Source: Rathayibacter sp. VKM Ac-2857 (GTDB lineage Bacteria > Actinomycetota > Actinomycetes > Actinomycetales > Microbacteriaceae). From it: a stretch of 64,000 nt of DNA. The notes below the pieces were generated by a model. It did no database searches and was not told the origin of the DNA. It saw only the letters and a program-made list of their open reading frames with translations. This document shows, in pieces, positions 23,148-32,533 of the stretch. The first letter of the stretch is position 1; the number at the start of each line of letters is the position of its first letter. The DNA is taken from the NCBI RefSeq assembly GCF_013205025.1, contig NZ_JABMLE010000004.1, positions 432,946 to 496,945 on the forward strand, written 5' to 3'. The translations under genes and the position numbers were made by a program.

Positions 23148-24134
23148 TCAGCGGTCGATGGACTGCATGTTCGCGTCGTCGTGGCGGGCACCGGCGGCGG
23201 GCGTGAGGGTGTTGAGGCGTTCGATCTGGTCGGCGGTCAGCTCGATCGCGTCGGCCGCGGTGTTCTCTTCGACACGGGACACGCGGCGGGTGCCGGGAAT
23301 CGGGGCGATGTCTTCGCCGCGGGTGAGGATCCAGGCGAGGGCGGTCTGGGCGGGGGTAGCTCCGATCTCGGCTCCGATCGCGCGGACCTCGTCGACGATC
23401 GCGAGGTTGCGGGCGAAGTTCTCGCCGACGAAGCGCGGGTTGGTCTTGCGCCAGTCGTCGTCCGGGAAGTCGTCGACCGAGCGGATCTGCCCGGTGAGCA
23501 GGCCGTGGCCCAGCGGCGAGTACGGCACGAAGCCGATGCCGAGCTCGCGGAGGAGGGGGAGGATCTCGTCCTCGACGTCGCGGGTCCAGAGGGAGTACTC
23601 GGTCTGCAGTGCGGCGATCGGGTGCACGGCGTGCGCACGGCGGATGGTCGCCGCGGACGCCTCGGAGAGTCCGAGGTGGCGGACCTTGCCCTCGGCGACG
23701 AGTTCGGAGACGAGGCCGATGGTGTCCTCGATGGGAGTGTTCGGGTCGACGCGGTGCTGGTAGTAGAGGTCGATGTAGTCGGTGCCCAGGCGACGGAGGG
23801 AGCCCTCGACGGCCGCGCGCACGGTGGCGGGGCTGCTGTCCATGACGCCTGCGCTGGTCTTGCCGCCGTCGTGCTTGACGAGGCCGTACTTGGTGGCGAT
23901 CTGCACCTGGTCGCGGCGCCCGCGGATCGCACGTCCGACGATCTCCTCGCTGAGGAACGGGCCGTACACCTCGGCGGTGTCGATGTGGGTGACGCCGAGG
24001 TCGAGGGCGCGGTGGATCGTGTTGATCGACTCGTTCTCGTCGAGGGTGCCCTCGGCGGTGTACGTGCCGGCCATGGTCATCGCGCCGAGGCCGATGCGGG
24101 AGACGGTCAGGTCTCCGAGGTGTGCGTTCTTCAT
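23148..24134 (-). CDS. Aldo/keto reductase
   Basis: 328 aa TIM-barrel AKR. Family residues visible: Asp and Tyr of the tetrad in THIDTAEVYGPFLSEEIVG, Lys in QIATKYGLVKHDG, and His in YIDLYYQHRVDPN. The C-terminal NADP-binding part has GEDIAPIPGTRRVSRVEENT. It reduces aldehydes or ketones with NADPH; the substrate is unknown. It is 25 bp downstream of the SDR gene at 24160 and likely shares its promoter and the 25-bp motif upstream of it. Confidence 0.9.
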   Translation of the reverse strand: MKNAHLGDLTVSRIGLGAMTMAGTYTAEGTLDENESINTIHRALDLGVTHIDTAEVYGPFLSEEIVGRAIRGRRDQVQIATKYGLVKHDGGKTSAGVMDSSPATVRAAVEGSLRRLGTDYIDLYYQHRVDPNTPIEDTIGLVSELVAEGKVRHLGLSEASAATIRRAHAVHPIAALQTEYSLWTRDVEDEILPLLRELGIGFVPYSPLGHGLLTGQIRSVDDFPDDDWRKTNPRFVGENFARNLAIVDEVRAIGAEIGATPAQTALAWILTRGEDIAPIPGTRRVSRVEENTAADAIELTADQIERLNTLTPAAGARHDDANMQSIDR

Positions 24135-24159
24135 CAGTGTCTCTCTGTCGGGGTTGGGG

Positions 24160-24927
24160 TCAGGCCTGCGAGGTGGGCATGGCCCACAACTCGGCGATGG
24201 AGGACCGGCGGTGGCGGGTCACCATGTAGAGGATGCTCTCGGCGATGTCCTCGGGCTGGAGGCGCTCGGGGATCGCCTCGGCGTCGGAGGCGGCGAGCTG
24301 GTCCTGGATCTTCTGGTTGTTCTGGGAGACGAGCTCGGTGGCGACCGCGCCGGGCTGGAGGACGCCGACGCGGACGTTCTTCTTCGTGACCTCCTGGCTC
24401 AGCGCCTCCGTGAACCCGTTCACACCGAACTTGGTCATCGCGTACGCGGCGAAGTTCGCCCACGCCTGGCGGCCGGCGATGGAGGAGATGTTGACGATGT
24501 CGGCGACGCCGCGCAGGTCGTCCTCGGCCGACCGGAGGAGGTGGGGGAGGGCTGCCTTGGTCATGTAGAGCAGGCCGTTCTGGTTGATCGCGATCATCCG
24601 CTCCCACTCCTCGACGTCGGTGTCCGCGACGGGGCCGAGGAGCATGAGTCCGGCGTTGTTGACGAGGATGTCGAGGCGTCCGAAGCGCTCGATGACCGTC
24701 GTGATCGCCGCTTCGGCCTGTGCGCGGTCGGTGATGTCGGTCGGCACCGCGAGTGCTGTGCCTCCGGCCTGCTCGATCTCGGCGACGAGCTCGTCGAGGC
24801 GGTCCTTGCGGCGCGCGACGAGGGCGACCGAAGCGCCCTCGACAGCCAGTGCACGAGCGGTGGCGTGACCGATTCCGCTGGAGGCGCCGGTGATGACGGC
24901 GACGGTTCCGGTGAGCTTGGAGGTCAT
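24160..24927 (-). CDS. Short-chain dehydrogenase/reductase (module 1)
   Basis: 255 aa classical SDR. Rossmann motif VAVITGASSGIGHATARALA (residues about 9-28), NNAG at about 88, catalytic Ser in NISSIAG and Tyr-x3-Lys in AAYAMTKFGVNGFTEAL. Cofactor NAD(P)H by family. It is divergent from the XRE/MmyB-like regulator at 25111, and the spacer carries motif copy 1. With the AKR gene it forms a two-gene operon. Confidence 0.9.
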   Translation of the reverse strand: MTSKLTGTVAVITGASSGIGHATARALAVEGASVALVARRKDRLDELVAEIEQAGGTALAVPTDITDRAQAEAAITTVIERFGRLDILVNNAGLMLLGPVADTDVEEWERMIAINQNGLLYMTKAALPHLLRSAEDDLRGVADIVNISSIAGRQAWANFAAYAMTKFGVNGFTEALSQEVTKKNVRVGVLQPGAVATELVSQNNQKIQDQLAASDAEAIPERLQPEDIAESILYMVTRHRRSSIAELWAMPTSQA

Positions 24928-25056
24928 GAGAAGTCCTTCCTTTCAGTGGTCGACGACAGTGTGTCTTCGACGAGAGCGAGGGGTGCGCTCGGGGAGGCGT
25001 ACATCGACTACGTCCACTCTCCGCGCCTTCCGCGAGGGGTGAGAGTCCTTGTCAAC

Positions 25057-25081
25057 AGGGTTAATACCGGGGCCCCTCTGG
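25057..25081 (-). promoter_or_regulatory. 25-bp shared motif, copy 1
   Basis: Read on the minus strand: CCAGAGGGGCCCC-GG-TATTAACCCT. It lies between the divergent SDR (24160-24927) and regulator (25111) genes, oriented toward the SDR. The same 25-bp word with few changes occurs at 28579 and 31575 in the other two SDR/regulator spacers. Probable operator or promoter element. Confidence 0.75.
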
Positions 25082-31545: not shown

Positions 31546-31574
31546 GCGCTCGACGCTACGCGCTGCTCGTCTCG

Positions 31575-31599
31575 CCAGAGGGGCCCTCCTATTAACCCT
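31575..31599 (+). promoter_or_regulatory. 25-bp shared motif, copy 3
   Basis: CCAGAGGGGCCCTCC-TATTAACCCT, differing from copy 1 (25057) at only a few central bases. It points toward the SDR gene at 31697. Confidence 0.75.
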
Positions 31600-31696
31600 C
31601 GAGACGGGGCCTCCCACCCCACGCGGGACGAGCGAAGACTGGAGGTACGCGTCGCCGAGACCGGCAGGCGCACCCTCGTTGAAAGGCACTGACCAC

Positions 31697-32533
31697 ATGA
31701 GCACCTCTGTCTGGTTCATCACCGGAGCCGCCCGCGGGATGGGCGTCGACCTCGCGAAGGCCGCGCTCGACGCCGGCCACTTCGTCGTCGCGACCGCCCG
31801 TGACGCGGCGAAGGTCACCTCCGCGCTCGGCGAGCACGAGAACCTCCTGCCCCTGTCCCTGGACATCACCGACCCCGCCGCCGCGCAGACCGCCGCCGAT
31901 GCCGCGGTCGAGCGCTTCGGCCGGATCGACGTCCTCGTCAACAACGCCGGCAACTTCTACGCCGGGTTCTTCGAGGAGATCAGCGACGCCCAGATGCGCC
32001 AGCAGATGGAGACCAACTTCTTCGGCCCGCTGAACGTCACCCGCGCGATCCTCCCGGTCATGCGGAAGCAGCGCGCCGGCAAGGTCGTCACCTTCTCCTC
32101 CGCCGCGGGCATCATCGGCCAGGAGTTCTGCGCCGCGTACGCCGCCTCGAAGTTCGCGGTCGAGGGCTGGATGGAATCGCTGCGCTTCGACGTCGCACCG
32201 TTCGGCATCACGACGACCATCGTCGAGCCCGGCTTCTTCCGCACCGAGCTGCTGACCGAGGGCTCTTCGCTCTGGCCGGAGCTCTCGATCCCGGACTACG
32301 CCGAGCGCACCGAGCAGACGATCGCCGCGTGGAAGAGCATGAACGGGCAGCAGGGCGGCGACCCCGCCAAGCTCGGCCGCGCCCTTGTCGAGATCGTCGC
32401 CCTCGACGAACCGCCCCTGCGCTGGATCGCCGGCGCAGACGCCGTCGCCGGCGTCGAGCAGAAAGCCCACGACCTGCTCGCGCAGGCGGACGCTCACCGC
32501 GCGCTGTCCTCCTCGCTGGACTTCGACGCGTAG
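31697..32533 (+). CDS. Short-chain dehydrogenase/reductase (module 3)
   Basis: 278 aa. Starts MSTSVWFITGAARGMGVDLA; NNAG at about 86; Ser in VTFSSAAGIIGQEF; Tyr-x3-Lys in AAYAASKFAVEGWMESL. It aligns with the module 2 SDR over its full length, including TNFF and VEPGFFRTELL. The family usually reduces carbonyls of small substrates or acts on steroids and terpenoids. The ATG at 31697 follows GAAAGGCAC. Confidence 0.9.
   Translation: MSTSVWFITGAARGMGVDLAKAALDAGHFVVATARDAAKVTSALGEHENLLPLSLDITDPAAAQTAADAAVERFGRIDVLVNNAGNFYAGFFEEISDAQMRQQMETNFFGPLNVTRAILPVMRKQRAGKVVTFSSAAGIIGQEFCAAYAASKFAVEGWMESLRFDVAPFGITTTIVEPGFFRTELLTEGSSLWPELSIPDYAERTEQTIAAWKSMNGQQGGDPAKLGRALVEIVALDEPPLRWIAGADAVAGVEQKAHDLLAQADAHRALSSSLDFDA

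What the first reader, a model, noticed from the sequence alone, without database searches (positions are those of the whole stretch)
23148..32533. Three consecutive SDR/XRE-MmyB regulator modules sharing one 25-bp motif
Three divergent SDR-regulator gene pairs lie within 9 kb, and each spacer holds the same 25-bp motif (25057-25081 minus, 28579-28603 plus, 31575-31599 plus). All three copies point toward the SDR gene, with fixed spacing between a G/C core (AGAGGGGCCC) and TATTAACCCT. The regulators are full-length paralogues, the second and third SDRs are close paralogues, and an aldo-keto reductase, an MFS exporter, a DUF2255 protein and an F420-reductase-like protein are interleaved. I infer a carbonyl/electrophile or terpenoid stress regulon built by module duplication, which I do not know as a described system.
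Basis: partly seen in the sequence, partly recalled or inferred. Interest (0 to 1): 0.78.

Follow-up and report, generated by a model that had tools for sequence, protein, structure and literature searches.

The report
Shared operator of MltR-type reductase regulators
Three neighbouring bacterial switch genes carry the same DNA landing site beside reductase genes; the gene pairing is a known actinobacterial arrangement, while the landing site, kept at a fixed place in relatives even where the neighbouring enzyme differs, looks undescribed and is easy to test.

Summary
Three divergent MltR/MmyB-like regulator (PF17765)-SDR pairs lie within 9.4 kb, each with one motif copy 30-31 bp from the regulator ATG, pointing at the SDR. 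With up to 3 mismatches the motif occurs nowhere else in the 4.6-Mb genome. In 15 genomes of the genus, 10 of 10 hits lie upstream of a PF17765 gene; reversed control 0. Among 102 regulators fetched without the motif, 20 of 30 close relatives and 0 of 72 others carry it. Best reading: the operator of one MltR subclade controlling NAD(P)H-reductase operons. The pairing was described by Xu et al. 2012, so the kind is known; I found the operator in none of the papers searched. Sister regulators carry other sites at the same place. A helix-residue link to site class weakened on a fuller set. Ligand and sign of regulation are inferred.

The parts
23148..24134 (-). AKR, aldo-keto reductase, likely second gene of the SDR1 operon
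   Evidence: PF00248 272.7 bits; SDR1 and AKR also adjacent in L013 and L092
24160..24927 (-). SDR1, classical short-chain dehydrogenase/reductase
   Evidence: PF00106 206.2 bits
25015..25019 (-). GAGTG element of module 1 (possible end of the SDR1 promoter -10)
   Evidence: A[CG]T[GC] in cols 86-101 in 32 of 33 clade members; 1, 5 and 2 of 33 at three control places
25040..25049 (-). O2 element of module 1 (AGGACTCTCA), weak
   Evidence: alignment; own1 fails the strict O2 pattern
25055..25079 (-). O1 operator copy 1
25098..25103 (+). REG1 -10 hexamer TACGGT, 7 bases before the ATG: predicted leaderless promoter
   Evidence: TANNNT at this place in 29 of 33
25111..26010 (+). REG1, Xre HTH + MLTR_LBD regulator
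   Evidence: PF17765 180.2 bits
26073..26444 (+). DUF2255 protein, downstream of REG1
   Evidence: PF10012; also follows a REG3 orthologue in L084
26441..27670 (+). MFS exporter, overlaps the end of DUF2255
   Evidence: PF07690; also follows a REG3 orthologue in L085
27678..28550 (-). REG2, Xre HTH + MLTR_LBD regulator
   Evidence: PF17765 183.5 bits
28557..28562 (-). REG2 -10 hexamer TACCGT
28581..28605 (+). O1 operator copy 2
28611..28621 (+). O2 element of module 2 (GGGTCTGTCTG)
28641..28645 (+). GACTG element of module 2
28710..29552 (+). SDR2
   Evidence: PF00106 168.5 bits
29601..30350 (+). PF03807 NAD(P)-binding oxidoreductase downstream of SDR2
   Evidence: PF03807 68.6 bits; NpdG model 40 bits against a cut-off of 149.8
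30655..31545 (-). REG3, Xre HTH + MLTR_LBD regulator
   Evidence: PF17765 186.7 bits
31553..31558 (-). REG3 -10 hexamer TAGCGT
31577..31601 (+). O1 operator copy 3
31606..31616 (+). O2 element of module 3 (GGGGCCTCCCA)
31637..31641 (+). GACTG element of module 3
31697..32533 (+). SDR3
   Evidence: PF00106 167.8 bits

Best explanation
The 25-bp motif is the operator of a subclade of MltR/MmyB-family regulators (Xre HTH + PAS-like MLTR_LBD). Shown: each copy lies in the shared spacer of a divergent pair, at a fixed place between the regulator's -10 box, which abuts its ATG, and the start region of a reductase operon; this layout recurs across a 33-row regulator clade. Inferred: the regulator dimer binds O1, activates the reductase operon when a hydrophobic carbonyl- or quinone-type ligand occupies the PAS-like domain, and controls its own leaderless gene by binding at its -35 region. 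Inferred: the three operators and the three recognition helices (SLEYYVR, SVEYYVR, SSEYYKR) are so alike that the regulators probably cross-bind, making one small local regulon of two SDR types, an AKR, a PF03807 oxidoreductase and an exporter. Activation rather than repression is my choice (about 60:40).
For: Only 3 places in the genome. 10 of 10 genus hits upstream of PF17765 genes, 9 at exactly 362 bp from the ligand-domain match and one at 370 (a match that starts at profile position 4), control 0. In 249 family genomes 7 of 8 hits at MLTR genes, control 4 hits. In 297 order genomes 6 of 6, control 1. Three hits in each search are the window's own. In 102 regulators fetched by PF17765 or protein similarity, the strict site is at its place in 20 of 30 with at least 57% identity to REG1-3 (the window's three included) and in 0 of 72 others, and nowhere else in the 120 bp upstream. 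Ungapped alignment; in the 33-row clade TANNNT 29, A@31 with GGG@34-36 29, RACC@48-51 30, strict O1 26 of 33, with no further hit on the reductase-directed strand in 300 bp of upstream. Best dyad centre of 164 tested is the operator centre, z 4.2-4.4. Partners in that clade: SDR 21, flavodoxin-like 5, AKR 4, none recognised 3.
Against: No binding or expression data. The dyad lies mostly in the outer arms, its pairing does not exceed what the columns alone give, and its half-sites are further apart than the ~10 bp proposed for MltR. The GACTG element is only a plausible -10, so the activator reading is weak. Part of the 33 rows were brought in by motif searches. 10 of 30 close relatives lack the strict site. 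Strict hits are few: 10 against 110 PF17765 matches in the genus; 6 of 249 and 4 of 297 genomes at wider range. Of the 68 loci, only L014, L015, L016 and L018 have it with up to 2 mismatches; the Streptomyces-type relatives do not.
Confidence: 0.76

Rival explanations
1. The conserved block is mainly core promoter sequence of two face-to-face promoters (-35/-10 of both genes) and not a regulator-specific operator.
For: The block abuts a conserved TANNNT (29 of 33) and a conserved GACTG-type element (32 of 33); O1 covers the expected -35 of the regulator gene.
Against: The motif is far longer than promoter hexamers and occurs nowhere else in the genome. TANNNT is kept in 40 of 46 regulators of 50-57% identity while O1 is kept in 0 of those 46, so site and promoter box vary separately. 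Sister groups carry other sites at the same place.
Confidence: 0.1
2. The regulators are ligand-relieved repressors: O1 binding blocks the regulator's -35 and hinders the reductase promoter; the reductase's substrate or product releases it.
For: O1 covers the -35 region of the leaderless regulator gene. Another XRE regulator, C. glutamicum MsrR, represses a divergent mfs and its own operon (PMC7532634, passages), although MsrR is not shown to be MltR-type.
Against: MmyB switches on the methylenomycin genes (PMC3406030, passages). O1 is centred 48 bp upstream of the GACTG element in all three window copies, a position usual for activators (general knowledge).
Confidence: 0.3
3. Recent local tandem duplication of one SDR-operator-regulator cassette gave all three copies.
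For: Regulators 58-61% and SDR2/SDR3 67% identical, within 9.4 kb.
Against: REG2 groups with Arthrobacter regulators; REG3 and REG1 group with other orthologues in starred branches. Rathayibacter sp. SD072 (L013) has all three orthologues clustered in a changed order. SDR1 belongs to another SDR type.
Confidence: 0.06

Closest known systems
MmyB/MltR family regulators and their divergent SDR/MDR genes (Xu et al. 2012, PMC3406030)
   Same: Xre HTH + PF17765 ligand domain; [quoted passage not shown] The paper reports this for 15 of 16 S. coelicolor paralogues (neighbours SDR/MDR or antibiotic-related) and for all 8 in S. erythraea, 6 of them with an SDR (passages).
   Different: The passages I read give no operator for such pairs; here a defined element is shared by three paralogues in one cluster. 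The 2012 emphasis is antibiotic and fatty-acid metabolism; here the partners are reductases of several folds.
MmyB of S. coelicolor SCP1 and its 'B-boxes'
   Same: Same family; pseudo-palindromic sites proposed (as cited in PMC3406030, passages)
   Different: B-box letters were not available to me, so the two sites could not be compared.
MsrR of C. glutamicum (PMC7532634)
   Same: XRE regulator with a site between divergent promoters, next to an MFS gene (passages)
   Different: Thiol-based sensing through one Cys; REG2 has no Cys at all and no Cys is conserved across the 13 rows of alignment A1.

Membership tests
MmyB/MltR transcription factor family | N-terminal Xre-type HTH | tested here: met
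   REG1, REG2, REG3: HTH_3 22.0, 25.0, 25.7 bits (cut-off 23); HTH_31 25.8, 26.7, 34.6 bits (cut-off 27). REG1 is just below both cut-offs but aligns with the others through the HTH
MmyB/MltR transcription factor family | C-terminal MLTR_LBD (PF17765) | tested here: met
   180-187 bits against a cut-off of 26.3 for all three; a family profile finds 3pxp (MltR) at 2.3e-10
MmyB/MltR transcription factor family | Shares its upstream region with a divergent SDR/MDR or antibiotic gene | tested here: met
   All three window pairs
MmyB/MltR transcription factor family | Dimer on a palindromic site spanning about 10 bp | tested here: inconclusive
   Dyad centre found, but outer-arm symmetry dominates; sister groups carry clearer palindromes at the same place
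MmyB/MltR transcription factor family | Binds a hydrophobic ligand in the PAS-like pocket | not testable with these tools
   Needs protein
Thiol-based XRE sensors (MsrR type) | Conserved sensing cysteine | tested here: not met
   No Cys in REG2, none conserved in A1
NADPH:F420 reductase (NpdG) | Curated NpdG score | tested here: not met
   40 bits against a cut-off of 149.8 for the protein at 29601-30350

The most novel reading that the evidence does not exclude
A family-wide operator slot with clade-specific lettering. MltR paralogues of one genome keep their site at the same distance from the regulator start but write it in different half-sites: A..GGG-N11-RACC here, GGTACTG-N-CAGTACC-like and GGTGTTCTG-N-CAGAACACC-like in sisters. 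Paralogous sensors would thus be insulated from other groups and pooled within a group. Within this group the operator stays while the enzyme behind it is exchanged among unrelated NAD(P)H reductases, making a multi-input carbonyl/quinone response.
Probability: 0.22. Interest if true: 0.62.

Novelty: new member of a known kind. Interest (0 to 1): 0.42.

Why it matters
MltR/MmyB regulators are numerous in actinobacteria (nine genes in this genome), yet I found no defined operator for the SDR-linked ones in the papers searched. A site with fixed geometry makes their targets predictable from sequence and gives a direct bench test. That unrelated reductases stand behind one operator hints that the shared signal is a reducible carbonyl or quinone.

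Tried and rejected
Rejected: chance; recent duplication; thiol sensing; an NpdG-type F420 reductase; a motif tied strictly to SDR. The GGGGCC core alone is not informative. A single-sequence search of solved structures found nothing; the profile found 3pxp and a phage repressor.

Weakened: a link between Glu or Asp at the third residue of the recognition helix and the site class. On 63 aligned regulators RAC stood at cols 48-50 in 30 of 34 Glu and 3 of 29 other helices. That set came from an HTH expression that had missed many Glu-helix regulators. On 102 regulators found by tblastn instead, 81 aligned: 25 of 44 Glu against 3 of 37 others; the strict site is in 20 of 50 Glu and 0 of 50 Asp helices. 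So Glu may be needed but is not enough; descent is a confounder. A Kocuria rosea plasmid regulator (SIEYYTR) also has a GTACCC site; a Streptomyces anulatus plasmid regulator (Asp helix) has a GGTACTG site. I therefore took the residue out of the most novel reading.

Other weak points: covariation in the dyad arms did not exceed the column expectation. The helix expression failed and was corrected. The sister-palindrome search hit 11 places in 297 genomes: 6 at MLTR genes; the other 5 show no MLTR HTH in the locus and look coding by eye; control 1. Paper searches. Papers seen as passages only: PMC3406030 (also outline and abstract), PMC12565409, PMC7532634, PMC10717218, PMC3160421; none read whole.

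Rows dropped: 12 of 75 regulators and 21 of 102 showed no recognisable architecture. 3 of 46 rows were left out of the dyad scan. 13 of 46 fall outside the 33-row clade. In some searches my HTH expression found no regulator in L177, L182, L186, L188, L192 and in many genus loci; one search recovered most of these. 33 of the 110 genus PF17765 matches were never fetched. Loci L019-L080 were searched for the motif but, except L037, L067 and L075, not shown; tblastn found no regulator in 43 of them and in L096.
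Full report
Observation. The window lies in a 4.6-Mb genome (G000, contig C4). Its genus is probably Rathayibacter: genome G013 of the same genus has a 25,282-bp contig C62, the same length as the Rathayibacter sp. SD072 contig behind L013, and the regulator of its motif locus L087 duplicates one of L013. Between 23148 and 32533 there are three divergent regulator/SDR pairs: AKR-SDR1 < > REG1-DUF2255-MFS; REG2 < > SDR2-PF03807; REG3 < > SDR3. Each spacer holds one motif copy, 30-31 bases from the regulator ATG and reading toward the SDR. 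A degenerate pattern fitted to the three, with up to 3 mismatches, hits only these three places in the genome; the reversed control hits one. The genome holds nine PF17765 genes; none of the other six has the motif within 3 mismatches.

Is it tied to the regulators? In 15 genomes of the genus the motif (up to 1 mismatch) has 10 hits in 7 genomes, control 0. Setting these places against the PF17765 matches of the same genomes puts 10 of 10 upstream of a PF17765 ligand domain: nine at exactly 362 bp, one at 370 bp where the match starts at profile position 4. In 249 family genomes there are 8 hits in 6 genomes; 7 are at MLTR genes and one, L090, is not; control 4. In 297 order genomes, 6 hits in 4 genomes, all at MLTR genes; control 1. 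Three hits of each search are the window's own. A check without motif selection: 102 regulators fetched by PF17765 or protein similarity carry the strict site (A..GGG-N11-RACC) at its place in 20 of 30 that are at least 57% identical to REG1-3, in 0 of 46 at 50-57% and in 0 of 26 below; it is nowhere else in the 120 bp upstream. So it belongs to one subclade, and 10 of the 30 close relatives have drifted from it.

Anatomy. I collected 130 regulators with their upstream DNA. 46 are at least 54% identical to REG1, REG2 or REG3; most of their upstreams align without gaps from the regulator ATG (three do not fit and were left out). Reading toward the reductase: (a) a TANNNT box whose last base is about 7 bases before the regulator ATG, which by PMC3160421 (passages) marks leaderless genes in Actinobacteria; (b) O1, cols 31-55; (c) a second element, GGGNCTCCCTC-like, cols 61-71; (d) a GACTG-type element near cols 88-96. 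In the 33-row clade, TANNNT is at the fixed column in 29, A@31 with GGG@34-36 in 29, RACC@48-51 in 30, the strict site in 26, O2 in 24, and A[CG]T[GC] in 32 (1, 5 and 2 at three control places). The dyad scan puts the best centre at col 43 (z 4.2-4.4 among 164 centres), driven by outer arms; pair counts do not exceed what the columns alone give. The dyad is a pattern, not proven by covariation.

Other site classes at the same place. Sister regulators carry GGTACTG-N-CAGTACC-like sites. A search for that palindrome hit 11 places in 297 genomes, 6 of them at MLTR genes whose helix reads SVDYY or SNDYY, control 1. A further group (L005, L121-L126, L130 and others) shows GGTGTTCTG-N-CAGAACACC-like sites there (by eye). 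My first finding that Glu or Asp in the recognition helix predicts the class (30 of 34 against 3 of 29) shrank on the fuller set to 25 of 44 against 3 of 37; strict O1 is in 20 of 50 Glu and 0 of 50 Asp helices. Glu alone does not set the class.

Partners and history. On one side of a branch with support 100/99 (midpoint rooting) stand 33 regulators; the divergent gene is an SDR in 21, a flavodoxin-like PF02525 oxidoreductase in 5, an AKR in 4 and not recognised in 3. A looser set, 35 rows at 57% identity or more, gives SDR 20, AKR 6, flavodoxin-like 5, none 4. REG1, REG2 and REG3 fall in separate supported branches: REG2 with Arthrobacter (another family), REG1 next to AKR- and flavodoxin-linked regulators, REG3 with other REG3-like genes. 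Rathayibacter SD072 has REG3, PF03807-SDR2, REG2, REG1 and SDR1-AKR clustered, in a changed order and without SDR3; its REG3 operator now faces a lipoprotein-like gene resembling the window's gene at 32702-33241. In L081 and L083 an AKR, with no SDR match, sits behind the operator. So the cluster looks like an old gathering with exchange and loss of enzymes, not a fresh triplication. Related modules ride on plasmids: a Kocuria rosea plasmid typed as mobilizable, and a Streptomyces anulatus plasmid where the SDR1-AKR stretch is similar DNA (77.8%) but carries no gene in the PLSDB table.

Mechanism. Shown: position, conservation, clade specificity, partner types. From family knowledge: MltR is a dimer with a PAS-like pocket holding a fatty-acid-like ligand, and MmyB is an activator (PMC3406030, passages). 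Inferred: O1 is bound by these regulators. It overlaps the -35 of the leaderless regulator gene and is centred 48 bp upstream of the presumed reductase -10, which fits activation of the reductase and control of the regulator's own gene; repression is the main rival. Cross-binding among the three is likely from the similar sites and helices. The ligand is unknown; the reductase theme suggests a carbonyl or quinone compound.

Known or new. The divergent MmyB/MltR-SDR arrangement is in print. The operator was not seen in passages of the family papers I opened, nor in the listings. PMC12565409 clustered 223 XRE motifs whose tables I could not read, so it may be among them. I therefore file this as a new member of a known kind with a probably undescribed operator.

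Noticed in passing
L013:1-2292 against window 31546-33241: In Rathayibacter sp. SD072 SDR3 is missing and the REG3 operator and promoter now face a lipoprotein-like gene (cyclophilin-like family in the window copy).
   Followed up: partly
L005, L121-L126, L130: A group of MLTR regulators (SIEYYSR/SVEYYAR helices) carries GGTGTTCTG-N-CAGAACACC-like palindromes at the operator place: a third site class.
   Followed up: partly
L197:4760-5120: A Streptomyces anulatus plasmid carries SDR1-AKR-like DNA with a 53% identical regulator with an Asp helix; its GGTACTG-type site lies about 11 bp (one helical turn) further from the ATG.
   Followed up: partly
L198:1871-3831: A Kocuria rosea plasmid typed as mobilizable carries a regulator/SDR module with a Glu helix and a GTACC-type site.
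   Followed up: partly
L019-L080, upstream of the regulator: Several Streptomyces orthologues share another upstream string, CCTACTACTGGCGGGGTCAGG-like, possibly their own operator.
   Followed up: no
G005:C12:58316-59342, G004:C2:298785-299829, G008:C1:3291785-3292847, G011:C4:245887-246946, G013:C55:26730-27759: In five genomes of the genus two PF17765 ligand-domain matches converge, 89-95 bp apart.
   Followed up: no
window 30355-30654: About 300 bp between the PF03807 gene and REG3 without a called gene; the one frame translated shows no recognisable protein.
   Followed up: partly
G013:C41:142560-143060 and G503:C1:1232802-1233626: MLTR genes with a stop codon inside; the first still has the operator.
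   Followed up: no
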